A stretch of DNA of 20,427 nucleotides from a virus (IMGVR_UViG_3300028045_000136:1-20427), one strand, 5' to 3'. Numbered from the stretch's first letter, positions 1 through 13,544 are shown. The notes: a model not told the origin generated them from the letters alone. Made by a program: numbers and translations.

Positions 1-173
1 CCCAATAACTTTCTCATTATATATTCCTGGTCATTATGTTCATATATCGTTAATCCTTCCATTGATTTGAAATAAGGTAATTGAACATGATCTGATATCT
101 TATCTAATATACGATAATGTTTATCAGACTTATCTATTTCCTCTCTTAATATTTTACGTATTAATCTCTTCAT
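1..173 (-). CDS. Leader-type paralogous repeat protein, 3' part outside window
   Basis: Partial gene: the start is at 173 and the reading frame runs off the left edge after 57 codons. The visible part has the family leader (MKRLIRKILREE) followed by the helical module beginning KSDKHYRILDKIS and ending in the DQEYIMRKLLG stretch. This is almost identical to the N-terminal halves of the genes at 690-1130, 2298-2711 and 9972-10385, so YD-like repeats may follow outside the window, although one sibling (1158-1667) carries an unrelated tail instead. Function unknown. The L-R-E at the end of the leader fits a T4-type prohead protease site (inference). A second, out-of-frame ATG lies 25 bases upstream at 198 because the start region is tandemly duplicated; the ATG at 173 is the one that opens the family reading frame. 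Confidence 0.85.
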   Translation of the reverse strand, partial: MKRLIRKILREEIDKSDKHYRILDKISDHVQLPYFKSMEGLTIYEHNDQEYIMRKLL

Positions 174-209
174 AATTTTTATCTATTAATCTTTTCATAA
201 TTTTTATCT
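160..209. repeat. 25-bp tandem duplication of a gene start
   Basis: Two adjacent 25-base copies (160-184 and 185-209) differ at one base. Each contains the leader of a family gene plus its ATG and first codons on the minus strand. The upstream copy places a decoy ATG at 198 that opens a short frame ending after 14 codons, while the downstream copy starts the true gene at 173. It is either a short slippage duplication or what is left of a family gene that collapsed by recombination between neighbouring copies. Confidence 0.8.
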
Positions 210-680
210 ATGATCCATTATATCACCATCAGAGTCTTCATAATACATATAATTACCCTTACTATCATATTCCCTTTTCTCCCAATAACCCTCAGAAGAT
301 TCATAATATATCTCATTACCATTATCATCATATTCTTGTTTCTCCCAAAAACCATTATGACGTTCATAATATATCTCATTATCCTTATCATCATATTCCC
401 ATTTACTCCACATAACTGAATTTTCCCAATATACCCTATTGTCATTTTCATCATAAATATCCCACCCTGAAAGAAGATTAATATTGATATCATCACCATA
501 TATATTTTTCATTATATATTCCCGATCATCTCTATCGGTTATATCCCAAAATCCACCATTATATTTTTCATACATATTTCTAAAATATGGTGGTTCAATA
601 ATGGAGGATATCTTATCCAAGAATCTATAATATTTATCAGATTTATGTTCCCTAAGTATTCGTTTTATTATTTTTTTCAT
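204..680 (-). CDS. Leader-type paralogous YD-like repeat protein
   Basis: A 158-residue member of the tandem family. The leader is MKKIIKRILREH. It is followed by a divergent helical module (KSDKYYRFLDKIS, then a PPYF and a DREYIMKNIYG segment) and about four YD-like repeats of roughly 21 residues with the pattern YDDxGNEIYYExSxGxWEK. The C-terminus has the family end cap, D-G-D-I-x-D-x-R. No catalytic motif, signal peptide or membrane segment is visible. Repeats rich in Tyr, Trp, Asp and Glu suggest an extended beta structure, but this is not shown. The gap to the upstream gene is 9 bases, so it is co-transcribed with its paralogues. This is the most diverged leader and helical module of the left array. 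Molecular function unknown; packaging into or processing with the capsid is a hypothesis based on the leader. Confidence 0.85.
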   Translation of the reverse strand: MKKIIKRILREHKSDKYYRFLDKISSIIEPPYFRNMYEKYNGGFWDITDRDDREYIMKNIYGDDININLLSGWDIYDENDNRVYWENSVMWSKWEYDDKDNEIYYERHNGFWEKQEYDDNGNEIYYESSEGYWEKREYDSKGNYMYYEDSDGDIMDHR

Positions 681-689
681 AATTTTTTA

Positions 690-1130
690 TCAACTACTAA
701 ACCATCTATTGTCTCTTATGTCACCATAAGAATTTTCCATATATATCTCATTATTATATTCATCATATTCATATTTATACCAATTACCCCTAATATCTTC
801 AAAGTATGTCATATCACCATTTTCATTATATTCCCGTCTTAACCAAAAACCATCATAATCTTCAGAATATATCTCATTACCATATTCATCATTAATAAAT
901 TTTTTTACTCTGTGGGTACTATTGAGGTTAATTGGTGGGACACTAATTCTTATATTACCCAATAACTTTCTCATTATATATTCCTGGTCATCATGTTCAT
1001 ATATGGTTAATCCTTCCATTGATTCAAAATAAGGTGTTTCCACATAATTAGATATTTTATCTAAGATACGATAATGTTTATCAGATTTATCTATTTCCTC
1101 TCTTAATATTTTACGTATTAATCTTTCCAT
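690..1130 (-). CDS. Leader-type paralogous YD-like repeat protein
   Basis: A 146-residue family member. It has the leader MERLIRKILREE, the standard helical module (KSDKHYRILDKIS through DDQEYIMRKLLGN), a short non-repeat spacer with two prolines (SVPPIN), and about three degenerate YD-like repeats. The end cap D-G/Y-D-I-R-D-N-R is followed by four extra residues ending in Ser-Ser, which the sister copies lack. The N-terminal half is nearly identical to the partial gene at 1-173, while the repeat part has drifted further. The start is set by the conserved leader and lies 27 bases after the stop of the preceding paralogue, the widest spacer in this array. Function unknown. Confidence 0.85.
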   Translation of the reverse strand: MERLIRKILREEIDKSDKHYRILDKISNYVETPYFESMEGLTIYEHDDQEYIMRKLLGNIRISVPPINLNSTHRVKKFINDEYGNEIYSEDYDGFWLRREYNENGDMTYFEDIRGNWYKYEYDEYNNEIYMENSYGDIRDNRWFSS

Positions 1131-1157
1131 AAAGGTTAAATGTTGTATTCTTGTAAA

Positions 1158-1667
1158 TTACCCGTTGATTATATCGTATTTTTTTTTTACCGGAAATCTC
1201 CCAAGGTCAAATAAGTATAAGATATATTCTATTTCTTCTTTTTCAATTTCTGTTAGTTGATTATATTTATACGTATAAAAGTCATCTAAACTAGTCCTAA
1301 CAGTAGGGTCAAAATCATCCATAATATCTATTGCCAGACTATGAAAAACTTCCTCATTAAAATCTTCTTTATTAGTTTTTGTAGGGGTTTCTAAAAAATT
1401 ACTATAAATACCATAATTAATCTCTTCATAATATACGCCACCTGTTGTATTATATATTTTATGAAAAAAATTAATATTAATAATAATATCATCACCTAAT
1501 ATTTTCTTCATTATATATTCTTGGTCATCCTTATCATATATGGTTAAACCTTCCATTGATTCAAAATAAGGTATTTCTACATGATCTGAAATCTTATCTA
1601 AGATACGATAATGTTTATCAGATTTCTCTATTTCTTCCCTTAATATTTTACATATTAATCTTTTCAT
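1158..1667 (-). CDS. Leader-type paralogue with an unrelated, non-repeat C-terminus
   Basis: A 169-residue protein. Residues 1 to about 58 are the family leader (MKRLICKILREE, with a Cys where siblings have Arg) plus the standard helical module ending in DDQEYIMKKILGDD. From there on it has none of the YD-like repeats. Instead there is a mixed segment (IININFFHKIYNTTGG) and then a predicted helical, acidic tail with motifs such as SLAIDIMDDFDP and LTEIEKEEIEYILYLFDLG. I do not recognise the tail. The same constant front joined to a different tail is seen again at 2718-3284, pointing to module exchange at the end of the helical domain. The stop lies 27 bases before the next gene and the start lies 6 bases after the previous stop. 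Confidence 0.85.
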   Translation of the reverse strand: MKRLICKILREEIEKSDKHYRILDKISDHVEIPYFESMEGLTIYDKDDQEYIMKKILGDDIIININFFHKIYNTTGGVYYEEINYGIYSNFLETPTKTNKEDFNEEVFHSLAIDIMDDFDPTVRTSLDDFYTYKYNQLTEIEKEEIEYILYLFDLGRFPVKKKYDIING

Positions 1668-1673
1668 AATTTT

Positions 1674-2291
1674 TTATCTATTATCTTCTATATAACCATC
1701 AGAACCTTCATAATATATTCTATTACCCTTATCATCATATTTTTGTATCTCCCATTCACCACGATTATCTTCCCAATATATTATATTACCATTATCATCA
1801 TATTCATATTTTTCCCAATAACTATAACTATCATCATCACCATCCACCACAAATATCACATTACCCTTATCATCATATAAAACTCTTTCATATATCCCAT
1901 ATTTATCTCTCGTAATACTTTCTTTATTTAAATGTTCTGTTGTATACCATGTACCCCTAGAATCTTCATGATATATCTTTTTACCGTTATTATCATATAC
2001 CATTAATATATTACCAACATATTCCCACTCAATATCTTTATTACCATATATCTTTTTCAATATAAATCCCTGTTCTTCTTTAGTTATTTCAAGAATATTA
2101 AATATTTTAAAATATGGTGGACTATATTCCTGGAAATATTCGATTAATAATTCCTTTAGATCATAACCTTGACCTTCTGATAGATATTTAACCATCTCAA
2201 TATTTTCTTCCTGACCAGAATTAAGTAGATTAAAGATTTTCTCTTTATATTCAAATTGTTCCCTTAGTATTTTACGTATTAATCTTTTCAT
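1674..2291 (-). CDS. Leader-type paralogous repeat protein with alternative helical module
   Basis: A 205-residue protein. The leader MKRLIRKILREQ is followed by the second type of helical module in this family (FEYKEKIFNLLNSG, IEMVKYLSEGQGYDLKELL), about residues 13-56. The rest has a PPYFKIFNIL segment resembling the PYF part of the standard module, an EEQGFILKKIYGN stretch equivalent to DQEYIMRKILGN, and then four or more YD-like repeats, one of them badly degenerate. It ends with the family cap D-G-Y-I-E-D-N-R. The first 160 or so bases are nearly identical to the 5' end of the gene at 2718-3284, indicating recent duplication or gene conversion. Function unknown. Spacing of 6 bases on each side indicates a single transcript. 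Confidence 0.85.
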   Translation of the reverse strand: MKRLIRKILREQFEYKEKIFNLLNSGQEENIEMVKYLSEGQGYDLKELLIEYFQEYSPPYFKIFNILEITKEEQGFILKKIYGNKDIEWEYVGNILMVYDNNGKKIYHEDSRGTWYTTEHLNKESITRDKYGIYERVLYDDKGNVIFVVDGDDDSYSYWEKYEYDDNGNIIYWEDNRGEWEIQKYDDKGNRIYYEGSDGYIEDNR

Positions 2292-2297
2292 AATTTT

Positions 2298-2711
2298 TTA
2301 TCTATAATCTATAATTCTACCATCAGAACCTTCATAATATATCCAACCTTTTAAATTTTCATCGTATTCATATTTCCTCCATCCTTCAGAATTTTCATAA
2401 TATATTATATTACCCTTATCATCATATTCCCATTTATTCCAATAACCTTCAGAATCTTCATAATATATCTCATTACCATTATCATCATAAATATATTTAT
2501 CCCAACCACCATTAGATTCTTCAATATATATTTCATTACCCAATATCTTTCTCATTATATATTCTTGGTCATCCTCATCATCTATGGTTAATCCTTCCAT
2601 ACTTTCAAAATAAGGTAATTGAACATGTTCTGATATCTTATCTAATATACGATAATGTCTATCAGATTTCTCTATTTCCTCTCTTAATATTTTACGTATT
2701 AATCTTTTCAT
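2298..2711 (-). CDS. Leader-type paralogous YD-like repeat protein
   Basis: A 137-residue protein and the clearest example of the family architecture. It has the leader MKRLIRKILREE, a standard helical module to DDQEYIMRKILGN (about residues 13-58), about four YD-like repeats, and the end cap D-G-R-I-I-D-Y-R. The third repeat is short, with a deleted residue after the Trp. It is flanked by 6-base spacers, so the preceding stop codon forms part of the A-rich leader of this gene. Closest relatives in the window are 9972-10385 (same length, other side of the terminase) and the partial gene at 1-173. Function unknown; packaging or processing with the capsid is inferred from the leader only. Confidence 0.87.
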   Translation of the reverse strand: MKRLIRKILREEIEKSDRHYRILDKISEHVQLPYFESMEGLTIDDEDDQEYIMRKILGNEIYIEESNGGWDKYIYDDNGNEIYYEDSEGYWNKWEYDDKGNIIYYENSEGWRKYEYDENLKGWIYYEGSDGRIIDYR

Positions 2712-2717
2712 GGGTTT

Positions 2718-3284
2718 TTATCCTTGATAATTTCGGGGTAAGGTATTGATTGTATCGTTATGGATTATTTTTACATATCGACTTCCTAAATGTTTTACAA
2801 ATCTCCACGATATTTCATATAATAAGTCATCTATGTTTATAGTGTTAAATAATGAACGAATATAAAAATCTAAATAAATAATATAACTATTTCTATTAAT
2901 ATCCACTTCATTTACTTTTATTTCATTAACCTCTTCTGCCTGATCACATACTTCATTCCTTAAAACATTCCCGGTACACCATGTATATTTTATTTCATCA
3001 AATATGTGGTCTATTATTTTTTCTATAATTTTAAAATTATTTTTACTGAAAATATCTATAATTGTTTCTTTATCCATTTTAAGGGTGTTCATTATTTTAA
3101 AAAAATGAGTTATCTCATATTCCTGGAAATATTCGATTAATAATTCCTTTAGATCATAACCTTGACCTTCTGATAGATATTTAACCATCTCAATAAGACC
3201 CTCGTCACCAGAATTAAGAAGATTAAAGATTTTCTCTTTATATTCAAATTGTTCCCTTAGTATTTTACGTATTAATCTTTTCAT
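2718..3284 (-). CDS. Leader-type paralogue with alternative helical module and unrelated C-terminus
   Basis: A 188-residue protein whose first 54 or so residues (leader MKRLIRKILREQ plus the FEYKEKIFNLLNSG module) nearly match the gene at 1674-2291, but which has no YD-like repeats. Its tail is predicted helical (DKETIIDIFSKNNFKIIEKI) followed by a mixed segment with two Cys and a DINRNSYIIYLDFYIRSLF stretch. I do not recognise the tail. The ATG overlaps the stop of the upstream gene in an ATGA, which suggests coupled translation and ties the array to the portal operon. It is the first gene of the left array and one of two that keep the constant front but carry a new tail. Confidence 0.85.
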   Translation of the reverse strand: MKRLIRKILREQFEYKEKIFNLLNSGDEGLIEMVKYLSEGQGYDLKELLIEYFQEYEITHFFKIMNTLKMDKETIIDIFSKNNFKIIEKIIDHIFDEIKYTWCTGNVLRNEVCDQAEEVNEIKVNEVDINRNSYIIYLDFYIRSLFNTINIDDLLYEISWRFVKHLGSRYVKIIHNDTINTLPRNYQG

Positions 3285-4048
3285 ATAATACTTTGATTTA
3301 AATCATATATTTTTGAAATGTCACTACTATAATTTTCACCATCATAACCCATGTTAAGAAGTTTATCTTTAACTTTTAATAATTTATCTTTTAAATCTAT
3401 ATCATTAGATTCATTTAATTTTTTATCTATAGTTTCAATACATTCTCTCTTTAATTTTTTATAAATCTTTTCCTTTTCATCATCATCACCATTAAGAATT
3501 GTTTTTATTATTTCTTTTTCTGATTCAGAAATATTTGAATACTTTAAATTAAATTTGTTTAACCCTAAATTAAGTAATACACTTGGGGGTAATTCCAACG
3601 ACTCAAATAATGATTCCTCCACTATTTCATTTTTAGTCATCACTTTTACTATAATATCAATACATTCGTTAATCTTATCTATATTAGATGGTGTTTTTTT
3701 AGTGTTAACCAAAAATTCTATATTATTATAAAAAGAATCGTTTACCTTTATAATTTTACTTTCTTTTAATATTTTTGAGAAATATCTATTCCCCCTTTCA
3801 ATTTTTCTTTTATTTAATCTTTTTAATAACGAAATATTTTCTTTTATATATTCCCTCGCCATTAATTCATCATCAAACTTTTTAGTTTGTAAATTTTTAT
3901 AAATTAAATATTGGTCAGATAAGGTTTTATTTTCTTTTAATGTTTTTACAAACTTTGAAAATATTTTTTTACCCCTTTTATTTTTCTTTATTACTGATTC
4001 AAATATTACATAATTAAATGTATCTTTTATATTACCAAAATTTTCCAT
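3281..4048 (-). CDS. Helical, highly charged protein downstream of portal (unknown)
   Basis: A 255-residue, Lys/Glu-rich, almost wholly helical protein with no Cys-based or enzymatic motif. The N-terminus (NYVIFESVIKKN) and the segment FSKFVKTLKEN contain I-x-E and L-x-E triplets, the pattern cut by T4-type prohead proteases. This would suit a core or scaffold-associated protein encoded right after the portal, but the assignment is speculative. It starts 22 bases after the portal stop behind an A-rich leader, and its own stop overlaps the next ATG by four bases. In T4 the genes after the portal encode prohead core proteins and the protease; I see no protease catalytic signature here, so I leave the function open. 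Confidence 0.8.
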   Translation of the reverse strand: MENFGNIKDTFNYVIFESVIKKNKRGKKIFSKFVKTLKENKTLSDQYLIYKNLQTKKFDDELMAREYIKENISLLKRLNKRKIERGNRYFSKILKESKIIKVNDSFYNNIEFLVNTKKTPSNIDKINECIDIIVKVMTKNEIVEESLFESLELPPSVLLNLGLNKFNLKYSNISESEKEIIKTILNGDDDEKEKIYKKLKRECIETIDKKLNESNDIDLKDKLLKVKDKLLNMGYDGENYSSDISKIYDLNQSII

Positions 4049-4070
4049 AGTTTTTTTTATTTTTATATTA

Positions 4071-5948
4071 TTATTTTATTAGATTATCAATTTCTTTTGT
4101 TATGTCTTCTATTTTTTTGTTAACTTTTTTTCTTCCCTCTTCTACCGTTTCTAAATTATAATTATTCTTATCCTCTTTAATACTCTCAGTTAACCTTTTT
4201 AAATAAATACCCTGATACTTCTTAATCTTTTCTTCATACACCCTTTTATTCTGTTCCATTATTAAATTATCCTTTTTATTAGTAGACTCTTCAGTAGGTG
4301 TTGGGATATCTCCACCACCAAAATCCGGTTCAAAACCACCCATGTCTCCACCCATGTCTTCCCCTTCTTCTCCTACTTCAGCCTCTCCGGCACCACTAAT
4401 CAAGGCATCAAAATCACCATATAATTTATCTACCCTGTCAAATATGCCTGTTTTCTTAATAACATTTGCGGTTTGTTCCATCTCAGCAGCAGCCGCCTTC
4501 TCTAATCTCTGTTGTTCTAAATCATTCCTGATTTCTTCCTCAGACATACCCAATATCTCCTTTTTTGCCCTTGTCATAGACATTGCCCCGAAACCATTAC
4601 CCGAATCTGTAACTGCATCTTTATATAACGTAACTTTCATTTGTGTTTGTTCTACTTTTAACATCTCTGATTGTGTAGAGGGGTTATTTAATGTCAATGT
4701 GAAATTCTCTAACTCATCCTCTAAACCTAAGATATATAAATGTACAATTGCGATTTTATTTAGTTCTTGTAACATTGATTGTTGTATCCTATTAATTGTC
4801 CTGGCGAATCTTATATCTTGTAATGCCAAATTTTTCCCCTCACCATTAACTTCCTCAAAACCTAAAAATGGTTTAGGAACTCTAAGTGCAGTAAATAGTT
4901 TCTTTTGAAGATATTGTATATCTGCAATTTCTGATAAATTTGTTGCCCCTGGTAATGTTTCTATTGGACTAGGTGAATTAGGGTCTCTTACTGGTATAAA
5001 ATAATCCTGATCCTGTGCCATTTGATTGTATCTTGTATCAATCTGTCCAGTTTTTTGGTCAATAACAGGACTCTTTTTAAAATTATTTGCGATTTTTTGA
5101 ACATATGATGGGACATCTTGTTCATCAATGTTACCAACAAATATTTTAAATATTCTTCTTTCTGGTGCCCTTGTTACTCTATATATCAACATCGCATCTT
5201 CAGATAGTAATAATTGTTTCCATATTCTTCTTGCCTTTTCTAACATTGATGTTCCATATGGTAATCTTCTATCGTCACCTAATAACCTAAAATGTGCCAC
5301 TTGCCACGCATTAAATTCTATATCCCTTTGACCCCAAACAAATTTTACTGGGTTATGTTTATCTGTTTCTGCGTTCATAGAATTTTCCCCGAAACCTTCA
5401 TTTTCCTTTCTAGTTATTTCTATATTGGGTAACTGTTTAACACTTAAAATACCTTCCTCACTATCTATATTTAGGAAAAGAAAATTATCCCCATATTTAC
5501 AAGTGTTTCTTGTCCACATAGGTAAAGATGTGTGAATATCCAATCTATTAAAAAATAAATCTTCTAATATTCTTCTCACCCTTTTACTTTCTGAAAAAAT
5601 ATTTAACATTTTATTATTAGAATTTAATGTTGTTGATTCTTCCATCATTATATCTAATGCAGCCGCAATTTCCGGGAAAAATTCCATACCTTCAAAATCC
5701 GCATAAGATGCCAACCTTGTTGTTTCGTAATATATTGAATGTTGATATATTTCATTATCAACTTTTTCCCACATATTAGAAAGATATCTATCTTGTTGTC
5801 TTTTTAACTTTTCAAATTCAAATTCTTCTTTTGATTTAGTTTTTAATAATTCTTTATCATTAAAAGAATAAGTAGATTTTTTTTGTCTCTCTTTAACTTC
5901 AGGACCAAATAAGTTATTTAATTGTTGAAATATTGTTTTCTTTGCCAT
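4071..5948 (-). CDS. Portal protein, T4 gp20-like
   Basis: A 625-residue portal subunit, expected to form the dodecameric ring at the capsid vertex through which DNA is packaged. Family signatures include the early helix pair around YYETTRLASYADFEGM and FFPEIAAALDIMMEES, the KYGDNFLFLNI strand region, the YRVTRAPERRIFKIFVGN segment (one of the best-conserved stretches of T4-type portals), and LPGATNLSEIADIQYLQKKL followed by FTALRVPKPFLGF. The last 100 residues or so form a Gly/Asp/Glu-rich linker (EEGEDMGGDMGGFEPDFGGG) and then a charged helical tail, which may be a species-specific extension. The size is a little above that of T4 gp20. The gene follows the terminase directly, with a 55-base gap containing a small inverted repeat. 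Start chosen at the ATG preceded by an A-rich leader. Confidence 0.95.
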   Translation of the reverse strand: MAKKTIFQQLNNLFGPEVKERQKKSTYSFNDKELLKTKSKEEFEFEKLKRQQDRYLSNMWEKVDNEIYQHSIYYETTRLASYADFEGMEFFPEIAAALDIMMEESTTLNSNNKMLNIFSESKRVRRILEDLFFNRLDIHTSLPMWTRNTCKYGDNFLFLNIDSEEGILSVKQLPNIEITRKENEGFGENSMNAETDKHNPVKFVWGQRDIEFNAWQVAHFRLLGDDRRLPYGTSMLEKARRIWKQLLLSEDAMLIYRVTRAPERRIFKIFVGNIDEQDVPSYVQKIANNFKKSPVIDQKTGQIDTRYNQMAQDQDYFIPVRDPNSPSPIETLPGATNLSEIADIQYLQKKLFTALRVPKPFLGFEEVNGEGKNLALQDIRFARTINRIQQSMLQELNKIAIVHLYILGLEDELENFTLTLNNPSTQSEMLKVEQTQMKVTLYKDAVTDSGNGFGAMSMTRAKKEILGMSEEEIRNDLEQQRLEKAAAAEMEQTANVIKKTGIFDRVDKLYGDFDALISGAGEAEVGEEGEDMGGDMGGFEPDFGGGDIPTPTEESTNKKDNLIMEQNKRVYEEKIKKYQGIYLKRLTESIKEDKNNYNLETVEEGRKKVNKKIEDITKEIDNLIK

Positions 5949-5972
5949 ATTTTTTTTAATTTTTTATATTAC

Positions 5973-5991
5973 TATGATAATAAATATCATA
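5973..5991. other. Small inverted repeat between terminase and portal
   Basis: A perfect 7-base stem (TATGATA / TATCATA) with a 5-base loop lies in the 55-base gap between the terminase stop and the portal start. The stem is all AT except for one pair and is not followed by a U run in the minus-strand transcript, so it is not a convincing terminator. It could be an RNA-processing or translation-modulating structure, or chance in such AT-rich DNA. Confidence 0.3.
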
Positions 5992-6003
5992 AAAAAATAA
6001 ATG

Positions 6004-7797
6004 TTATCTCCCACCAAATAACCAGTTATATTCACCATCATCATTGTTACCATTATTAGGTTGTTTAGGGTGATATGTTGGTGTACTACTATAAAAAGGA
6101 CTATTATATTGTCTATTCACTTTATTAACTTTATTGTTTGAAGAAACATTAACCCAACTATCTAACATTGCCTTAGTTTGTTTTTCTACTTGTTCTAATT
6201 TTTTAAATGATGTTTGCACAATAAAAATAGGCATTGCGTATGCCATGATTATATCATCGTGATATCCATTCATATGGTCTGGTCTACCATTTTTATAAAC
6301 AAAAGTTCTTAATTCAGATATAAGTCTTTGTGAACGTATTATTGTTTTGTTTTCTCTAATGTGTTCTTCAAATTCTGAAATCATTTGTAATCTTGTATTC
6401 CCTACATTAAACCCAGGTACTTTATTACCTTGTTTATACACAGTTTTTGCATATTTTTCACTTAATTTTCTACTCTTAGGGTCATCATAATGTAAATATT
6501 TATAATCCATTTCTAATAATTTTAAAACTGTTGCAACACCCATACCACCGGTAATATCAACAATAGTGTATGCATTATAAAGATTACCATATTTATATAC
6601 TATTTCTGCTAAAATATCTGGTGGTAATTTATGTTGAAATTCTGCAACTTGTTCTAAGTTTTGGAAATCTAATATAACTATAGTAGAACTATCTTTCCCA
6701 TCCCCCCTACTAACATCTACACCCATAATATATTTATGACCCTCTTCAGGTTTTTTCCATATCCACATAGATTTTTCAACCTCTGCCATTAATAGAGGTT
6801 CTTCAACATTATTTTTTTCATGAAATGAAATAAATTCATCATCAATCACATTACCTCCTGACCCAATAAAAGAAACATCTAATTCTTGTGCAATTTTTTT
6901 AGGATCACCCATATCCGCAGACATCTCATCATACCAAGGTGATAATGGTTTCCAACCATCATCAACCATAATATCATAATGTTCTATTATGTTTTCATTA
7001 GTTTCATATATCTTACCTTTATATTCCCACCTTAAGGCCCTTCTACCTATAGTCTCACATTTAATATTATTTTCGTTTTCTTTATGCCAATATAACCCTC
7101 GATTGTATCTTATATCGTGATACCATCTCATTTCTATAATATTAAAGTTATTATCTTTTTTTCTTGCCGAATCGTAAGTTTTATAATATAGGGGATCCAT
7201 TCCATTAGGGGTGGAGATTAGTGCGATATTACCACCAGTACCTAAACTTGCCAAGGCGGCACCAAATACTTCATCACCTTTATCAATAAAGGCTGCTTCG
7301 TCCATTATTAAAAAAGTTGGTGTGAAACCCCTTAACGCATCTTTAGATGTGGCTAATGCCCTTATTTCACATTTATTACCTTTTAATAATAAATGACCTT
7401 TGGAATTAACATCTAAGTAGTCAGTACCTTCATTTAGACCCCATACCCAATATGGTATTTGGTCTAAAAACCCCTTTACCTTTTTTAAGAATTCTTGTGC
7501 TAAAGTTTGTTTATTCGCTAATAATAATACTTTGTTAGGGTTTTCTGGGTCACCAAAGGCAGTTTTTACTGCAATGTATGCCGCAGTAGTAGTAGACACC
7601 CCGGCTTGTCTAGGTTTAGTAACTATATTACGATTAAAATTTTCGTAGGCTTTAATAATTTCTTTTTGTTTATAAAATAACTTAAATGGTACATTACCTT
7701 TTTGTGTTAAATCAAAAGTCTTTAAAAAAGTTTCTATCGCAAAAATTGGGTCACCTAAACAACGGGCAAATAATTTTAATTGTTCACTTCTATCCAT
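6004..7797 (-). CDS. Terminase large subunit, T4 gp17-like packaging motor
   Basis: A 597-residue DNA-packaging ATPase/nuclease. The ATPase half shows a Walker A-type loop at residues 61-69 (KPRQAGVST, the R-Q-x-G-x-S/T variant typical of gp17), a Walker B at 163-168 (LIMDEA, with the catalytic Glu) and a coupling motif S-T-P-N-G near 195-199. The RNase H-like nuclease half shows metal-binding acids at about D361 (in GVDVSRGDGKDS), D414 (in TIVDITGGMG) and the H-D-D at 513-515. All motifs are intact and the length is close to T4 gp17, so it should be functional. No small subunit is recognisable, though the acidic gene just upstream occupies that place. The start is an ATG after a TATAAATA-containing leader. 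The enzyme acts at the portal encoded next. Confidence 0.97.
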   Translation of the reverse strand: MDRSEQLKLFARCLGDPIFAIETFLKTFDLTQKGNVPFKLFYKQKEIIKAYENFNRNIVTKPRQAGVSTTTAAYIAVKTAFGDPENPNKVLLLANKQTLAQEFLKKVKGFLDQIPYWVWGLNEGTDYLDVNSKGHLLLKGNKCEIRALATSKDALRGFTPTFLIMDEAAFIDKGDEVFGAALASLGTGGNIALISTPNGMDPLYYKTYDSARKKDNNFNIIEMRWYHDIRYNRGLYWHKENENNIKCETIGRRALRWEYKGKIYETNENIIEHYDIMVDDGWKPLSPWYDEMSADMGDPKKIAQELDVSFIGSGGNVIDDEFISFHEKNNVEEPLLMAEVEKSMWIWKKPEEGHKYIMGVDVSRGDGKDSSTIVILDFQNLEQVAEFQHKLPPDILAEIVYKYGNLYNAYTIVDITGGMGVATVLKLLEMDYKYLHYDDPKSRKLSEKYAKTVYKQGNKVPGFNVGNTRLQMISEFEEHIRENKTIIRSQRLISELRTFVYKNGRPDHMNGYHDDIIMAYAMPIFIVQTSFKKLEQVEKQTKAMLDSWVNVSSNNKVNKVNRQYNSPFYSSTPTYHPKQPNNGNNDDGEYNWLFGGR

Positions 7798-7840
7798 TAT
7801 AATATTTATTTATAAATATTGGATAAAAATAAAATATTGT

Positions 7841-8863
7841 TTAATACAAATAATCTCCAATACTTTCATTAAAGTATTTCTCTACTAAAGTATGGTCAGG
7901 GTGATAATAATCTAAATTTGTAGGTAAAGATAATAATTCATTTTCTTCTATCATTACTTCTTTTAATACTTCAAGAAAATAATTAGAATGACCAGAGGGG
8001 TATTCATACAAAGTAATAAAAAACTTTTTTAATGTTTCATAAAAAATATCAGTTATGTCAAATAATAAATCTTGACCAACCCATTTACCTTGACCCAAAA
8101 GACTTTTTAATTCTCTATGTGCCATATCAAATAATTCACTTTCTGCCGCACTATTATAACTTCGTAAATAGTTATTTGATAAATCTATTCTAAGATCTTG
8201 AAATAATTCATCTGTTTTGATTAAAGATTCTAACTCATTATTTAACATTTCCATAGTTAAGGTTTCACCATTATTAAGTTCTTCACCAATATAATTTTCT
8301 TTATTTTCCATTATAAATTCTTTAATAGAATTAAAAGAATCAGAGTTTATGGATTCAAATACGTCATCATCATATGGGTCAAACTCATACATTTCAGAAA
8401 AATCTTCAGAAAATATATATGTTTCTAAAATGTACCTATCACCTTCAACAAATAAATCTATTAACTCTGACCAATGGTCAACATTTAAAATAATTTTATT
8501 ATCAGACAATGTTATATCATAATAATCATTACTGAAATGTTTTGTATTCTTTATATTATCATCTATCCACCCTATTTCATTTAAAATATCTATTACATCA
8601 TCATAATCAAAATTATTAAATGTTGCAAAACTTTCATCAAAGTCAAAATATTCAAAAATATCTTCACCTTTTTCCATCAACCATAACATTGTGAGTTTTA
8701 ATATTTCATACTCATCAATATTGGTAAACCCATGAATTTCGTTTACAATTTCAAAAAAAGACATATCACGATCTTCATCATATACTTCTATATCCTTAAT
8801 ATATTGTTTTAGAAATTCATCTATTATTTTTTTATTAGTTGCCATTGTTTTATCTTCATTCAT
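7841..8863 (-). CDS. Acidic protein upstream of terminase (unknown)
   Basis: A protein of about 340 residues, strongly acidic and rich in Phe, Tyr and Asp, with predicted helices throughout and no catalytic signature that I recognise. There is a Trp-rich piece (LTMLWLMEKGED) near residue 60 and an EGDRYILETYIFSEDF stretch in the middle. It sits immediately before the terminase large subunit, where T4-like phages encode the small terminase subunit, but it is about twice the usual size and shows no helix-turn-helix or coiled coil that would support that role. I chose the ATG at 8863, which shares one base with the stop of the previous gene (TGATG), a coupling arrangement also seen at 14849. A TTG three bases earlier and an ATG at 8845 (MATNKKIIDEF) are alternatives. 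Confidence 0.8.
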   Translation of the reverse strand: MNEDKTMATNKKIIDEFLKQYIKDIEVYDEDRDMSFFEIVNEIHGFTNIDEYEILKLTMLWLMEKGEDIFEYFDFDESFATFNNFDYDDVIDILNEIGWIDDNIKNTKHFSNDYYDITLSDNKIILNVDHWSELIDLFVEGDRYILETYIFSEDFSEMYEFDPYDDDVFESINSDSFNSIKEFIMENKENYIGEELNNGETLTMEMLNNELESLIKTDELFQDLRIDLSNNYLRSYNSAAESELFDMAHRELKSLLGQGKWVGQDLLFDITDIFYETLKKFFITLYEYPSGHSNYFLEVLKEVMIEENELLSLPTNLDYYHPDHTLVEKYFNESIGDYLY

Positions 8864-9489
8864 CAAAACCCATCAGAATCTTCAAAACTTATTTGTTCAC
8901 CATCTTCATCATATTCAGATTTCTCCCAATAACCACCAGAAAGTCCTTGTGTTACAATGACTGAATGAAAAAAATCATAATGTTGATACCCAGTATATTC
9001 ATATTTCCACCAAGAACCATCAGAATCTACAGAATATATTCTATTACCCTTATCATCATATTCATTTTTTTGCCATTCACCAGAAGAATCTTCCCAATAT
9101 ATCATATCACCATAATAATAAATACTCTTTCCTTTAATACTTATATCATTACCCAATATTTTTCTCATTATATATTCCTGGTCATCCTTATCATATATAC
9201 CTAAGGCTTCCATTGATTTAAAATAAGGTAATTCACCATAAGTAGATATTTTATCCAACATACGATAATGTTTATCAGATTTTTGGGTGTCAGGTGGTAA
9301 TTGTATAGAAACTTCATCTTCATGTATCCACACTTCAACACCACTTAAAAAAAGTTCTTCATCATCAGGACTCTTTAAAAACGTTTGAGTAGAGTCTTCA
9401 CCTATTTGATATACACCTTTTCTGTATCTTTGTGTTATAGTAGTGTTTTCTATTGTTTTAGTAATGTAATCTCTTATTTGTACATCCAT
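8863..9489 (-). CDS. Chimeric paralogous repeat protein lacking the leader
   Basis: A 208-residue member of the YD-like family with a replaced N-terminus. Residues 1 to about 68 are unrelated to the siblings and look beta-rich (YRKGVYQIGEDSTQTF, VEVWIHEDEVSIQLPP). From KSDKHYRMLDKIS onward it has the standard helical module (to DQEYIMRKILGN) and about four YD-like repeats, one interrupted by a roughly 20-residue insert (GYQHYDFFHSVIV). It stops at EDSDGF without the usual I-x-D-x-R cap. The junction lies exactly where the leader would end, so the exchange removed the putative targeting peptide. Either the new domain supplies another localisation or the protein is no longer handled like the others. 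The downstream gene starts within its stop codon (TGATG). Confidence 0.85.
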   Translation of the reverse strand: MDVQIRDYITKTIENTTITQRYRKGVYQIGEDSTQTFLKSPDDEELFLSGVEVWIHEDEVSIQLPPDTQKSDKHYRMLDKISTYGELPYFKSMEALGIYDKDDQEYIMRKILGNDISIKGKSIYYYGDMIYWEDSSGEWQKNEYDDKGNRIYSVDSDGSWWKYEYTGYQHYDFFHSVIVTQGLSGGYWEKSEYDEDGEQISFEDSDGF

Positions 9490-9513
9490 TTTACTAATGT
9501 ATTAAATTTTTAT

Positions 9514-9873
9514 CTATTCAAAATCATCTTCAAATATATACCAAGTTTCACTATCATCATCTTCAAAATACCTCTTTCTACCATCATCTACATTATAGAC
9601 AAACCCCGAAGCACCAATAAAAACATTCGTATTAAATATTTTACTTAATATATATTCCTGGTCATCCTTTTCATATATGGTGAATCCTTCCATATCTTTG
9701 AAGTATGGTATTTCTATATAATTGGATAATTTATCCAACATTTCATAATGTCTATCACTATCAGATTTATATTGTTCCCTTAGTATTCGTTTATCTAACA
9801 TAGTTATTTTTTTAAGGTCAGATTCTGTTAACCTTATAATTCTACCATTTTTCCTTATTTTCATTATTTTCAT
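9514..9873 (-). CDS. Leader-type paralogue, short form with extended leader
   Basis: A 119-residue family member whose N-terminus is longer than in the siblings. It contains NGRIIRLTESDLKKI followed by DKRILREQ, so a second leader type (R-L-T-E-S-D-L) is fused ahead of the usual leader ending. The helical module is present (SDRHYEMLDKLS to DDQEYILSKIF), but only one degenerate repeat-like segment follows and the end cap is absent; the protein ends EDDFE. Two in-frame ATGs sit nine bases apart (9873 and 9864) behind an (AAT)8 run; I chose the first. A close match of its 3' end is found as an orphan tail at 9917-9976, so this copy was once duplicated. Function unknown. Confidence 0.82.
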   Translation of the reverse strand: MKIMKIRKNGRIIRLTESDLKKITMLDKRILREQYKSDSDRHYEMLDKLSNYIEIPYFKDMEGFTIYEKDDQEYILSKIFNTNVFIGASGFVYNVDDGRKRYFEDDDSETWYIFEDDFE

Positions 9874-9895
9874 TATTATTATTATTATTATTATT
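9872..9895. repeat. (ATT)8 microsatellite at a gene start
   Basis: Eight ATT units overlap the start codon of the gene at 9514-9873, so on the coding strand (AAT)n runs directly into the ATG. The same eight-unit repeat precedes the likely start of the gene at 14849-16768. Slippage here could change leader length and translation rate. Confidence 0.8.
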
Positions 9896-9916
9896 ATAGA
9901 TTCATTAAATTTTTAT

Positions 9917-9976
9917 CTATTCAAAACGATCATAAGTATACCATATGTCTTCACCTGTCATATCATAAATTCTATC
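9917..9976 (-). pseudogene. Orphan 3' tail of a family gene
   Basis: Read in the frame DRIYDMTGEDIWYTYDRFE then stop, this piece resembles the last residues of the gene at 9514-9873 (SETWYIFEDDFE then stop). The bases following both stops are also identical for over 20 positions. It lies directly behind the stop of the gene at 9972-10385 and in a different frame from it, with only a 14-codon ATG frame left. I read it as the remnant of a deleted or overwritten copy of the short-form gene. Confidence 0.6.
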
Positions 9977-9979
9977 TAT
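9963..9979. repeat. 17-bp direct repeat, downstream copy
   Basis: TCATAAATTCTATCTAT occurs here and at 10382-10398, flanking the gene at 9972-10385. The upstream copy contains that gene's leader and ATG; this copy contains the same leader followed at once by the orphan tail. This fits a leader whose gene body has been deleted. Confidence 0.7.
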
Positions 9980-10385
9980 AATCTCTTATATCACCATAAG
10001 AATCTTCATAATATATTCCATTACCCTTATCATCATATTCCCTTTTCACCCATCTACCATCAGAATCTTCAGAATATATCAGATTACCATTATCATCACG
10101 TTCTTTTTTTCGCCATTCACCCACATAATTTTCCCAGTATATTATATTACCCTTCTTTCTATCGTAGACCTCTATCCAATGTTTTTCTCTTACAATCTTG
10201 ATGATATCATTACCCAATATCTTTCTCATTATATATTCCTGGTCTTCCTTATCATCTATGGTTAATCCTTCCATTGATTCAAAATATGGTAATTGAACAT
10301 GATCTGATATTATATCTAATCTACGATAATGTCTATCAGATTTCTCTATTTCCTCTCTTAATATTTTACGTATTAATCTTTTCAT
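9972..10385 (-). CDS. Leader-type paralogous YD-like repeat protein
   Basis: A 137-residue protein, the first copy transcribed in the window and close to the gene at 2298-2711. It has the leader MKRLIRKILREE, a standard helical module (KSDRHYRRLDIIS to EDQEYIMRKILGND), a short basic spacer (IKIVREKHWIEVYDRKKGN), about three YD-like repeats and the end cap Y-G-D-I-R-D-Y-R. It is separated by 18 bases from the stop of the upstream virion-type gene, which itself begins with a related leader (IIKNILKEQ). Gene copies of this type therefore lie on both sides of the terminase-portal block. Function unknown; capsid association is a hypothesis. Confidence 0.86.
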   Translation of the reverse strand: MKRLIRKILREEIEKSDRHYRRLDIISDHVQLPYFESMEGLTIDDKEDQEYIMRKILGNDIIKIVREKHWIEVYDRKKGNIIYWENYVGEWRKKERDDNGNLIYSEDSDGRWVKREYDDKGNGIYYEDSYGDIRDYR

Positions 10386-10398: not shown

Positions 10399-10413
10399 TA
10401 TTTTTATAGATAG
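10391..10413. other. 8-bp perfect inverted repeat spanning a stop codon
   Basis: CTATCTAT and ATAGATAG form an 8-base stem around a 7-base AT loop; the stop codon of the gene at 10404-11825 falls at the loop edge. No U run follows on the minus strand, so intrinsic termination is unlikely. It could slow readthrough or mark an RNA cleavage point between the virion genes and the repeat-protein array. Confidence 0.35.
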
Positions 10414-11825
10414 TCTTTTAATTTCCTTATTAAGTCAAAATTACCATCATCTAATGCATCATTTATTAAATCTTGTATTTCTCTTTTAGACATATTAGAA
10501 TAATCTACTTCTCCACCATCTTCTTCATCTTCTAAATCCCACAATTCTATTTTTCCATCATCCTCATCATCTAAATGGTCTAAAACATCTCCCATATCAT
10601 CATATCCAGTATCATCTAACATATCTTCTAAACTTTCATTTTCATCTTCATAATGAAGTTCTTTTAATGTTTCTATGATTTCACCACACCTTTGACTACC
10701 ACTAATTATTTCTTTCATAAATTCATGAAATTGTAACGCAGGTAATTTTGATAATTCTCTGAATAACCATTGTTTTATATCATAATCTTCAGGTGGAATA
10801 CAGTTTAAGAATTTTTCCCACATACCTGGTCCTAATCTCATTCCCCAAAGTTCGTTTTCTAACGTATCAGATTTTTTAATAACCTGTTTTTGTTCTTCAA
10901 AATCTAAATGGTTGTCACCCCAATTAGTTGCGGCCAATTCTAATACCCCTTTAATTAATTCATGTACCAATACTGGGAAAATCCATGCCTTTGCCTCAAC
11001 CACAGGTACTTTTTCCTCATCCTCTAAACCCATTTCCTCTAATTCATCTTCATCTTCTTTTTCAGGTTTTTTCCATTTTATCTTTTCTTTACCACCTACC
11101 GTACCCGTTAACATTGAGTCGGGTATAATCCAATAATTTAAATCGGCCAAAGACATTAATCTACCATATAATGCCATTAATGTGGGATCAATAGAATCTA
11201 ATTCGTCTGCAACCATATGGAAAATATAATGACCTTTTTTTGCCGCACCTTGCATTAATGCGTTAATCACATTTCTTTTATCTACCTCTAATTCTAATTC
11301 TTCCATTCTTTTTGCACTCTTAGGTTGTTTAGGTATCTCATATTCTTCACCATCATCATCATCATCATCATCCATACTAATATTAGTTCCAGGTGGAACT
11401 AATTCTACCTCTAACATACTTTCTGGTACATCAAATTCTTCTGAAACAATATCAATTGCCAATTGTTCTAATGCATCTTTGTGTCTTGTTTCTATAATAG
11501 AAATATCTTTCATTAATCTCATCATTTGAGCCATGAGTCTAGAATCAATATTATTAATACCATGATACCTTTTTACTTTATTTATAATATCTTTAAATCT
11601 TTTAGATGCCAATTTTTCAGAATAATTATGTAAATCTCCTAAAGGTAAGGATTTACTTTTTCCAAAAATATGTTCACCACTTCTTAATCTTCGTTCAATA
11701 TCAGGATTCATTCTTTCAGAATGTTCAGGGTCATATTCTATTTCTTCTTTTATATTAAATTCTTCTTTTATATATTGTTCTTTAAGAATATTTTTAATAA
11801 TTGAATCTAAATTTTTTCTTTTCAT
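10404..11825 (-). CDS. Probable virion/prohead-associated protein, full-length three-part version
   Basis: A 473-residue protein with three parts. The N-terminal part starts with a leader (SIIKNILKEQ, containing L-K-E) and includes EYDPEHSERM and KRFKDIINKVKRYHG. A central domain (about residues 166-260, from KQPKSAKRMEE to KIKWKKPEKEDED) lies between acidic linkers, the first with seven Asp in a row. The C-terminal part (IFPVLVHELIKGVLELA, LRLGP-type segment, DYDIKQWLFRELSKLPALQ) ends in an acidic tail and SKREIQDLINDALDDG. The first and third parts are repeated in the gene at 12498-13544 and the central domain in 11865-12488. I cannot name the family. H-E-L-I-K-G is not an HExxH metalloprotease site. 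The location among virion genes and the leader suggest a capsid or prohead role. Confidence 0.85.
   Translation of the reverse strand: MKRKNLDSIIKNILKEQYIKEEFNIKEEIEYDPEHSERMNPDIERRLRSGEHIFGKSKSLPLGDLHNYSEKLASKRFKDIINKVKRYHGINNIDSRLMAQMMRLMKDISIIETRHKDALEQLAIDIVSEEFDVPESMLEVELVPPGTNISMDDDDDDDGEEYEIPKQPKSAKRMEELELEVDKRNVINALMQGAAKKGHYIFHMVADELDSIDPTLMALYGRLMSLADLNYWIIPDSMLTGTVGGKEKIKWKKPEKEDEDELEEMGLEDEEKVPVVEAKAWIFPVLVHELIKGVLELAATNWGDNHLDFEEQKQVIKKSDTLENELWGMRLGPGMWEKFLNCIPPEDYDIKQWLFRELSKLPALQFHEFMKEIISGSQRCGEIIETLKELHYEDENESLEDMLDDTGYDDMGDVLDHLDDEDDGKIELWDLEDEEDGGEVDYSNMSKREIQDLINDALDDGNFDLIRKLKDYL
11351..11371. repeat. (CAT)7 coding microsatellite
   Basis: Seven CAT units on the plus strand encode the seven-Asp run at the linker ahead of the central domain of the 473-residue protein. 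The linker is where the paralogue at 12498-13544 has lost that domain, so this low-complexity stretch may be a recombination-prone boundary. Confidence 0.75.
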
Positions 11826-11864
11826 AATTTTTTTTATTTATAATTTTTAAAAATAATAACTTAT

Positions 11865-12488
11865 TTAATCTTCATCCTCTTTTTTAGGTTTTTTCCATTT
11901 TATCTTTTCTTTACCTGCGATACTACCAGTTAACATTGAGGCAGGGATAATCCAATAATTTAAATCGGCCAAAGACATTAATTTACCGTATAATCCCAAT
12001 AACCTTGGGTCAATCGAATTAAGTTCTTCTTCAACCATATGGAAAACATAATGACCCTTTTTTGCCGCACCTTGCATCATTGCATTGATCACATTTCTTT
12101 TATCTACCTCTAATTCTAATTCTTCCATTCTTTTTGCACTCTTAGGTTGTTTATCTTCCTTTAATCTGTTTTCTTGTAATTTTTTTTCATCTTTCACTAC
12201 CCTTACTATTGATGAACCATACATATTAAAATAGGAATCAAATGAAATTGAACTACGTTTTGGGTGTCCAATAGGAAACCCTCTAGTCCCAAATAAAGAA
12301 AATTCATGTCCAAATATTTTGTCCATATCATAAAAATTATCAAAATAAAAATCTTCATATTTTTTATCGTCAAAATATGAACTAGTGACAACATTTTGTT
12401 CATCAGTTACCCACTGATTAGGCATCCCAACAAAACTAAAAAAAACATTGTTTCGTTTATTTAAAGGGTCTTTTTTTTTCTTTTTCAT
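11865..12488 (-). CDS. Free-standing central domain with a new N-terminus
   Basis: A 207-residue protein. Residues from about 113 to the end (KQPKSAKRMEELELEV to KKPKKEDED) are nearly identical to the central domain of the 473-residue protein, including the distinctive INAMMQGAAKKGHYVFHM and LMSLADLNYWIIP stretches. It stops inside the acidic linker where the long protein continues. The first 110 or so residues are unique: a very basic start (MKKKKKDPLNKRNN) and an aromatic-rich segment (YFDDKKYEDFYFDNFYDMDK) that I do not recognise. It lacks the leader. It sits between the gene that lacks this domain and the gene that has it, so the three look like products of one duplication followed by domain partition. 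It could replace the missing domain in trans. Confidence 0.83.
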   Translation of the reverse strand: MKKKKKDPLNKRNNVFFSFVGMPNQWVTDEQNVVTSSYFDDKKYEDFYFDNFYDMDKIFGHEFSLFGTRGFPIGHPKRSSISFDSYFNMYGSSIVRVVKDEKKLQENRLKEDKQPKSAKRMEELELEVDKRNVINAMMQGAAKKGHYVFHMVEEELNSIDPRLLGLYGKLMSLADLNYWIIPASMLTGSIAGKEKIKWKKPKKEDED

Positions 12489-12497
12489 AATTATTTT

Positions 12498-13544
12498 TTA
12501 TAAATAGTCTTTTAATTTCCTTATTAAATCAAAATCACCATCATCTAATGCATCATTTATTAAATCTTGTATTTCTCTTTTAGACATATTAGAATAATCT
12601 ATTTCCCCATCTTCTTCATCTTCATATTCTTCCTCTTCCTCTTCCCCTTCATATTCTTCCTCTTCATATTCTTCTTCCCCTTCATCTTCATAATGAAGTT
12701 CTTTTAATGTTTCTATGATTTCACCACACCTTTGACTACCACTAATAATTTCTTTCATAAATTCATGGAATTGTTGTGCGGGCAATTTTGATAATTCCCT
12801 AAATATCCATTGTTTTATATCATAATCTTCAGGTGGAATACACTTTAAGAATTTTTCCCACATAATAGGACCTAATCTCATTCCCCAAACTTCGTTTTCT
12901 AACGTATCAGTTTTTCTAAGAACACCTTTTTGTTCTTCAAAATCTAAATGATCACCACCCCAATTAATTGCAGAAAGTTCTAATGCCCCTTTAATTAATT
13001 CATGGACCAATAAGGGGAAAACCACCGCCTGGGCCTCAATTACTGGTACTAATCCTTCTGATGGAACTTCTTCTTCTTCTTCATCAAAATTTATACTAAT
13101 ATTAGTCCCTGGTGCCACTAATTCCACCTCTAACATGCCTTCCGGAATATCAAATTCTTCTGAAACAATATCAATTGCCAATTGTTCTAATGCATCTTTG
13201 TGGTTACGTTCTATTGCATGAATTTCCATTAAAACGGACATAAAACGACTATTAACTCTTCTAACATCATTAACACCATGATATGATTTTACCTTTTGTA
13301 TTACATCTTTAAATCTTTTAGATGCCATCCTTTGAGAATAGTTTTCTAAATTAGTTGAAGGGAAGGATTTACTTTTCCCAAAAATATGTTCATCGTTCCT
13401 TAATTTTCTTTCAAGTTCAGAATGCATTCTTTCAGGGTGTTCTGGGTCATATTCTATTTCTTCTTTTATGTTAAATTGTTCTTTTATATATTGTTCTTTA
13501 AGAATATTTTTAACTATTGAATCAATTATTTTTTTCCTTTCCAT
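12498..13544 (-). CDS. Probable virion/prohead-associated protein lacking the central domain
   Basis: A 348-residue paralogue of the 473-residue protein at 10404-11825. It starts with the same kind of leader (SIVKNILKEQYIKEQF) and shares the N-terminal part up to VELVAPGTNIS. It then passes through a short Glu-rich linker (FDEEEEEVPSEG) straight into the C-terminal part (VIEAQAVVFPLLVHELIKG). The central domain of roughly 95 residues is absent. The acidic tail is expanded into a long Glu/Tyr run before the shared end (SKREIQDLINDALDDG to KLKDYL). DNA identity with the sister gene is high in the shared blocks, so the split is fairly recent. The neighbouring gene 9 bases downstream carries the missing domain. 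Confidence 0.85.
   Translation of the reverse strand: MERKKIIDSIVKNILKEQYIKEQFNIKEEIEYDPEHPERMHSELERKLRNDEHIFGKSKSFPSTNLENYSQRMASKRFKDVIQKVKSYHGVNDVRRVNSRFMSVLMEIHAIERNHKDALEQLAIDIVSEEFDIPEGMLEVELVAPGTNISINFDEEEEEVPSEGLVPVIEAQAVVFPLLVHELIKGALELSAINWGGDHLDFEEQKGVLRKTDTLENEVWGMRLGPIMWEKFLKCIPPEDYDIKQWIFRELSKLPAQQFHEFMKEIISGSQRCGEIIETLKELHYEDEGEEEYEEEEYEGEEEEEEYEDEEDGEIDYSNMSKREIQDLINDALDDGDFDLIRKLKDYL

What the first reader, a model, noticed from the sequence alone, without database searches (positions are those of the whole stretch)
1..10385. Recombining array of leader-bearing repeat proteins around the terminase-portal core
Ten paralogous genes (seven at 1-3284, three at 8863-10385) bracket the packaging genes. 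They combine a short leader, one of two helical modules, and YD-like repeats or an unrelated tail. The combination of a T4-capsid-targeting-like leader, many diversified copies and position in the late operon suggests a repertoire of internal proteins packaged in the head, comparable in logic to T4 internal proteins such as IPI*, which is injected to block host defence. This functional link is inference; the modular paralogy is directly visible.
Basis: partly seen in the sequence, partly recalled or inferred. Interest (0 to 1): 0.78.

Follow-up and report, generated by a model that had tools for sequence, protein, structure and literature searches.

The report
Tagged repeat-protein arrays in phage head operon
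An uncultured T4-like phage carries at least ten related small genes beside its DNA-packaging genes, nine of which begin with a short tag that looks like the address label T4 uses to load proteins into its head, so the phage (and dozens of other tagged genes in its relatives) may carry an exchangeable set of proteins ready to be injected into the host; the loading itself is predicted, not shown.

Summary
Observation confirmed with corrections. Ten paralogous genes lie at 1-3284 (seven, the first cut by the contig end) and 8863-10385 (three), bracketing portal and TerL. Nine carry an N-terminal MKRLIRKILRE-type leader; 8863-9489 has lost it, and 9514-9873 seems to carry two fused leaders. Bodies combine a PPYF helical module, a second module, and 21-residue repeats that model as Rhs/teneurin YD sheets, or tails without relatives.
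Relatives show an exchangeable cargo system. The array slot is empty in 26/35 and in 9/35 holds one gene with four mutually unrelated bodies behind one leader; homology stops at the leader's L-x-E. The leader matches the T4 capsid-targeting rule (hydrophobic -6/-3, L/I-x-E), is enriched at N-termini across the clade (OR 4.4, p 2e-25; control phages OR 0.87), and ends like the major capsid protein's own processing site (LLNE|S, aligned to T4 gp23 E65). Recognisable tagged proteins are cell-wall or virion-like; untagged ones are enzymes.
Leaderless YD arrays in other phages sit among replication genes, so this clade seems to have tagged and moved a pre-existing family. Best reading: head-packaged, probably injected internal proteins. 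Packaging, cleavage, injection and anti-defence action are untested. New variant of a known kind.

The parts
3..173 (-). Array gene 1 (cut by the contig end): leader MKRLIRKILREE plus PPYF module
174..203 (-). 30-nt scar: duplicated leader start (ATGAAAAGATTAATA) and spacer, a likely recombination or slippage footprint
   Evidence: read directly
204..680 (-). Array gene 2: leader, PPYF module (long form), about 4 YD-like repeats
690..1130 (-). Array gene 3: leader, PPYF module, about 3 YD-like repeats
1158..1667 (-). Array gene 4: leader, PPYF module, tail without YD repeats; no relative of the tail among the ORFs of the fetched loci
1674..2291 (-). Array gene 5: leader, module B, second half of the PPYF module, YD-like repeats
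2298..2711 (-). Array gene 6: leader, PPYF module, YD-like repeats; modelled (repeats pLDDT about 90, Rhs/teneurin-like)
2718..3284 (-). Array gene 7: leader, module B, unique tail (no relative found in IMG/VR)
3281..4048 (-). Conserved core gene (255 aa) that borders cargo slot 1 in relatives
4071..5948 (-). Portal protein (T4 gp20 type, phrog_213, E 9e-62)
6004..7797 (-). Terminase large subunit (phrog_2, E 3.5e-44)
7841..8866 (-). Conserved core gene; some homologues in relatives begin with the leader (MRNIIKKILRE-), this one does not
8863..9489 (-). Array gene 8: leader replaced by an unrelated ~68-aa N-terminus; PPYF module and YD-like repeats kept
9514..9873 (-). Array gene 9: two leader types in tandem (LTESDL type + RILREQ), PPYF module, short tail; its leader matches the slot-1 genes of relatives
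9972..10385 (-). Array gene 10: leader, PPYF module, YD-like repeats
10404..11825 (-). Conserved late gene with a leader-like N-terminus (SIIKNILKEQ); borders cargo slot 2
12498..13544 (-). Diverged, internally deleted copy of 10404-11825 with the same leader

Best explanation
The array is one cargo cluster of an enlarged T4-type internal-protein system. Each gene encodes a short amphipathic leader ending in I/V-L-x-E. The leader docks the protein on the prohead core and is cut off after the E by the gp21-like prohead protease, leaving the body (PPYF module plus YD-like beta-sheet, or another domain) inside the head, from which it is injected with the DNA. The shared leader and module DNA serves as a homology arm through which bodies are duplicated and swapped, so slots in the late operon hold none, one or many cargo genes. 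SHOWN here: modularity, recombination footprints, slot variation, leader statistics, the L/I-x-E rule, the matching capsid pro-site, and the YD fold by model. INFERRED: packaging, cleavage, injection, and action in the host cell (perhaps against first-line defence, as for T4 IPI and IPIII).
For: (1) Leader geometry: in 83 leaders from five relatives, -2 is L/I in 79 and V in 1, although V is common at -3 (17) and -6 (22); -3 and -6 are 93% hydrophobic. T4 IPIII is targeted by residues 4 and 7 and processed at 8 and 10, by the L/I-x-E rule (PMC9026906). (2) N-terminal enrichment in five relatives: 111/486 proteins against 172/2704 internal windows, OR 4.4, p 2e-25; unrelated phages OR 0.87. (3) The clade has a gp21-type protease (phrog_207) and a gp23-type capsid protein whose LLNE|S aligns with T4 gp23 E65 and is kept in 14/14 variants as LL[NS]E. 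(4) Slot between g3281 and g145: empty in 26/35; in 9/35 one leader gene, four bodies. The leaders align over about residues 1-31 (68-86% identity for the alignments that stop there), just past the E; the bodies alone give no hit. (5) Leader plus DNA homology then a sharp drop. (6) Arrays in two other phages follow the tail-sheath gene, one as a 522-aa fusion of three units. (7) Tagged proteins with Pfam hits are cell-wall, lysozyme or LRR types; untagged ones include thymidylate synthase, methylases, IMPDH, sigma factor and DnaJ. (8) Leaderless YD arrays elsewhere lie near helicase, primase and polymerase genes, fitting a body that works in the cell and was given a packaging tag here.
Against: No virion proteome was found for this clade. 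About 23% of proteins carrying the motif (about 16 points above background) is far more than T4's few internal proteins, so the leader may be a more general late-protein tag. Tagged lysozymes and peptidoglycan-binding proteins could be tail parts. P1' is mostly E/S/D/N, and E is unlike the A or S seen in T4 gp23 and the clade's own capsid protein. The scaffold shows no excess of L/I-x-E. 8863-9489 has no leader. YD arrays are widespread without any leader.
Confidence: 0.62

Rival explanations
1. The leader is a general late-protein or virion-assembly tag of this clade (docking to membrane-bound proheads, tail or neck), and the array proteins are structural or tail-associated rather than head-internal cargo.
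For: Tagged proteins include phage tail lysozyme and tape-measure-like matches; two relatives carry the arrays next to tail-sheath (and in one, tail-tube) genes; the tag is very common.
Against: L/I-x-E with V excluded, the matching capsid pro-site and homology ending at the motif point to the prohead protease. Unrelated, often-absent cargo does not suit a structural part.
Confidence: 0.2
2. The array proteins act in the host cytoplasm late in infection (for example superinfection exclusion, decoys or anti-defence) and are not packaged; the leader is only a conserved recombination arm or an inherited N-terminal helix.
For: YD arrays are common in phages without a leader, near replication genes; leader DNA identity is what recombination arms would show.
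Against: A pure DNA arm does not explain protein-level conservation of position-specific residues across three divergent leader types, or the restriction to non-enzymatic or cell-wall proteins.
Confidence: 0.13
3. Neutral tandem duplication junk: the array expands and decays without function.
For: Unique tails without relatives, one gene without a leader, a partial leader duplication at 174-203.
Against: dN/dS mostly 0.1-0.7, intact reading frames in all nine complete members, arrays in at least three phages of the clade and in many others.
Confidence: 0.04

Closest known systems
T4 internal proteins IPI, IPII, IPIII and Alt with their capsid targeting sequence (CTS)
   Same: Short N-terminal leader, hydrophobic spacing and L/I-x-E, leader shared by unrelated bodies, accessory genes, a T4-type protease, portal, TerL and capsid protein in the same phages.
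   Different: Leader sequences are not recognisably homologous; far more tagged genes per genome; tandem arrays of one family; P1' is mostly E/S/D/N; YD-like bodies; packaging not shown.
Cleaved head and ejection proteins of phiKZ, 201phi2-1 and SPN3US
   Same: A large set of head proteins processed after a short x-x-E motif (PMC9026906, PMC7411985).
   Different: Those propeptides are often long (111-130 aa in SPN3US) with S/A-x-E or A-x-E, and capsid content was measured by mass spectrometry.
YD/Rhs repeat proteins (Rhs effectors, teneurins)
   Same: Repeat region modelled as a YD-type sheet (8uy4 E 1.8e-4; 8qja TMq 0.50, rmsd 1.6 A).
   Different: 3-6 repeats of 21 aa, no shell, no DPxGL core motif, no C-terminal toxin domain seen.
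Leaderless YD-repeat paralogue arrays of other phages (IMG/VR; Verrucomicrobia phage P8625 gp42)
   Same: The same 21-aa repeat, and in many of them tandem paralogues (up to 12).
   Different: Other N-termini (MTIAQQL..., MKKLSETYKEL...), no L-x-E leader, neighbours are replication and transcription genes.

Membership tests
T4-type internal proteins with CTS | 10-19-residue N-terminal propeptide ending in L/I-x-E | tested here: met
   9 of 10 array genes carry ...ILRE (an 11-residue leader in eight, about 32 residues in 9514-9873, longer than in T4); clade leaders 79/83 L/I at -2
T4-type internal proteins with CTS | Hydrophobic targeting residues at the spacing of IPIII (positions 4 and 7, processing at 8 and 10) | tested here: met
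   -6 and -3 hydrophobic in 93% of 83 leaders, which matches IPIII numbering relative to residue 10; the choice of leaders partly selects for this
T4-type internal proteins with CTS | One leader on otherwise unrelated bodies | tested here: met
   leaders align over about 29-32 aa, bodies without similarity
T4-type internal proteins with CTS | The phage has a gp21-type protease whose capsid protein is processed at the same motif | tested here: met
   phrog_207 protease and phrog_138 capsid protein in relatives; LLNE|S aligns with T4 E65; the motif is present, cleavage itself is not shown, and these genes lie outside the window
T4-type internal proteins with CTS | Present in mature virions, leader removed | not testable with these tools
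   needs virion mass spectrometry
T4-type internal proteins with CTS | Injected into the host; anti-defence activity (IPI, IPIII) | not testable with these tools
   known for T4 only
Rhs/YD repeat proteins | YD-repeat beta-sheet fold | tested here: met
   AF2 repeats pLDDT about 90; Foldseek best hits Rhs and teneurin; no Pfam hit
Rhs/YD repeat proteins | Large closed shell, DPxGL core motif, C-terminal toxin | tested here: not met
   119-208 aa, motif absent, no toxin domain found

The most novel reading that the evidence does not exclude
A whole clade of uncultured T4-like phages uses a modular capsid-targeting tag on dozens of proteins per genome, with dedicated exchange slots in the late operon, so each virion delivers a large, fast-changing injectome. 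Families that other phages encode near their replication genes (YD-repeat arrays) are re-routed into the head by adding the tag.
Probability: 0.45. Interest if true: 0.82.

Novelty: new variant of a known kind. Interest (0 to 1): 0.64.

Why it matters
If the leader is a capsid-targeting sequence, head cargo can be read from sequence alone in an uncultured phage clade, giving a list of predicted injected proteins of unknown function. It would make the role of T4-type internal proteins, a long-standing question (the role of IPII, and the target of IPIII, are still unknown), testable on a large natural set, and would add delivery tags of a new sequence type to the T4 system. It would also show how a phage turns a protein made during infection into a pre-packaged one by swapping in a short leader.

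Tried and rejected
Pfam and PHROG scans of the array proteins gave nothing significant. The tail of 1158-1667 has no relative among the fetched ORFs, and the tail of 2718-3284 and the N-terminus of 8863-9489 have no close relative in IMG/VR. Excess of L/I-x-E sites in the scaffold: none (10 against 10.2 expected). A cultured relative with a virion proteome: closest is Flavobacterium phage immuto (TerL 28%); it has a few similar leaders, but I found no proteome paper. No paper in the library holds the LTESDL string or describes phage YD-repeat arrays of this kind. Rhs toxin reading rejected (size, no DPxGL, no toxin domain). Exact leader DNA in IMG/VR: only the same 65-kb contig, so the leader is shared as protein and not as a mobile DNA element. 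Neutral junk was considered and given low weight (dN/dS, intact frames). An 11-of-11 binomial test of tagged accessory genes was set aside because six of the nine slot-1 genes are orthologues; six independent bodies remain.

Full report
What is there. The window is a 20.4-kb IMG/VR virus fragment with its late genes on the minus strand. It holds a T4-type portal (4071-5948) and large terminase (6004-7797). Ten paralogues flank them: seven at 1-3284, the first cut by the contig end, and three at 8863-10385. The proteins are built from parts: a leader (MKRLIRKILRE), a 'PPYF' helical module (YRxLDKISxxVxxPYFxSMExLxIxxxDQEYIMxKIxG), a second helical module (IFNLLNSGxxENIEMVKYLSEGQGYDL), and 21-residue YD-like repeats or other tails. 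The gene at 8863 lacks the leader and has a different N-terminus; the gene at 9514 seems to carry two leader types in a row.

Recombination. The first 60 nt are identical between 1674-2291 and 2718-3284, and between 2298-2711 and 9972-10385, with 85-93% identity over the next 120 nt and then a fall to about 37-72%. A 30-nt duplicated start lies at 174-203. dN/dS over the leader plus module is mostly 0.1-0.7, with one pair near 1.

Relatives. Eighty TerL relatives (74-86% identical) share a fixed late gene order where their contigs allow it to be seen: g13562, g10404, g7841, (about 284 aa), TerL, portal, g3281, g145, protease, scaffold-like, capsid protein. The slot between g3281 and g145, where the seven-gene array sits, is empty in 26 of 35. 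In the other 9 it holds one gene with the leader MKIRKNGxxxNLTESDLxRIVKRxLNES and one of four bodies (90, 102, 109 or 155 aa). The slot of the second cluster is empty in 49 of 50 and holds one leader gene in the other; L014 has one more leader gene beside TerL. Six of the nine slot-1 genes belong to close relatives with near-identical bodies or repeat a body, so the independent count of accessory bodies is six, all tagged. Pairwise blastp of these genes aligns residues 1 to about 30, just past the predicted cleavage E (a few alignments run on at low identity), and bodies cut off behind the leader give no hit at all. In two other phages the same family sits directly after the tail-sheath gene (G001 and L189), and in L189 as a 522-aa fusion of three units.

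The leader. Three types (MKxLIxxILKEE; MKKIIRLTESDLxRIVxRVIxE; MKIIITESQLKRLLNE) share one geometry. In 83 cases -2 is L or I in 79 and V in one, while V is frequent at -3 and -6 (Fisher p 6e-5 and 1e-6). A pattern taken from the T4 rule hits 22.8% of N-termini against 6.4% of internal windows in five relatives (OR 4.4, p 2e-25), and shows no N-terminal excess in unrelated phages (OR 0.87). The review of T4 head work (PMC9026906) gives the rule: propeptides of 10-19 residues, targeting mainly by residues 4 and 7, processing at 8 and 10, cleavage after L/I-x-E. The clade's capsid protein has LLNE|S at the column of T4 gp23 E65, kept as LL[NS]E in 14 of 14 variants. The protease is of the head-maturation family phrog_207. 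The scaffold test was null.

What is tagged. Of 78 tagged proteins, those with Pfam matches are peptidoglycan-binding, tail lysozyme, cell-wall hydrolase, LysM, SH3 and LRR types, apart from one weak V-SNARE match; untagged proteins of the 166-kb relative include the usual enzymes, and also two amidases and one peptidoglycan-binding protein. This fits virion cargo but also leaves room for tail components. Because the five genomes are related, these counts are not independent.

The repeats. The model of 2298-2711 has a leader helix, a low-confidence helical part and beta repeats at pLDDT about 90. Foldseek finds Rhs effectors and teneurins first and small phage proteins. By sequence, a cultured example is gp42 of Verrucomicrobia phage P8625. 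YD proteins with 1-12 copies occur in more than 60 other viral loci, with other N-termini and no leader. Their larger neighbours are mostly replication and transcription genes. Bacterial relatives are repeat proteins of Clostridia and Treponema. I read this as a pre-existing phage family that acts in the infected cell, to which this clade added the head tag. That last step is inference.

Function. T4 IPI blocks a type IV restriction enzyme, and IPIII lets T4 infect strain ECOR17 even when expressed without its CTS (PMC9391042), so internal proteins are a precedent for injected counter-defence. Nothing here identifies a target for the array proteins.

Verdict. I rate it a new variant of a known kind.

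Noticed in passing
10404-13544: Relatives have one g10404 gene; the window has two diverged copies plus 11865-12488, whose C-terminal 95 aa are 85% identical to just the segment (residues 166-260) missing from 12498-13544, behind an unrelated 112-aa N-terminus: a duplication with a shuffled piece.
   Followed up: partly
L113:8245-9852 (G026 68.2-69.9 kb): Three adjacent genes in the 166-kb relative with the same ITESQYKRLLNE-type leader and different bodies: another cargo cluster.
   Followed up: no
L127:9827-10800: Two tandem paralogues starting MIRRPWETKRNLILESNxRILGESK next to the G001 array, perhaps a fourth leader type.
   Followed up: no
L175 and other leaderless YD loci: Tandem arrays of up to 12 YD-repeat paralogues (MTIAQQL... 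start) near replication genes in many unrelated uncultured phages; no function known.
   Followed up: partly
L151-L154 (Flavobacterium phage immuto): A cultured distant relative has leader-like N-termini (for example ENFDLKKFLVENKLTTNSKILKE) just upstream of TerL; it could serve as a laboratory test system.
   Followed up: partly
19378-20037: ORF that looks like a DNA cytosine methyltransferase-type protein (PPCTGFS motif); read by eye only.
   Followed up: no
17178-17978: ORF with a nucleotidyltransferase-like motif (GSLANYNWSKYSDVDLHI), conserved in the clade; read by eye only.
   Followed up: no
L049:14690-14926: A GIY-YIG-like reading frame stands where the prohead protease gene is expected in one relative, perhaps a homing endonuclease; read by eye only.
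   Followed up: no
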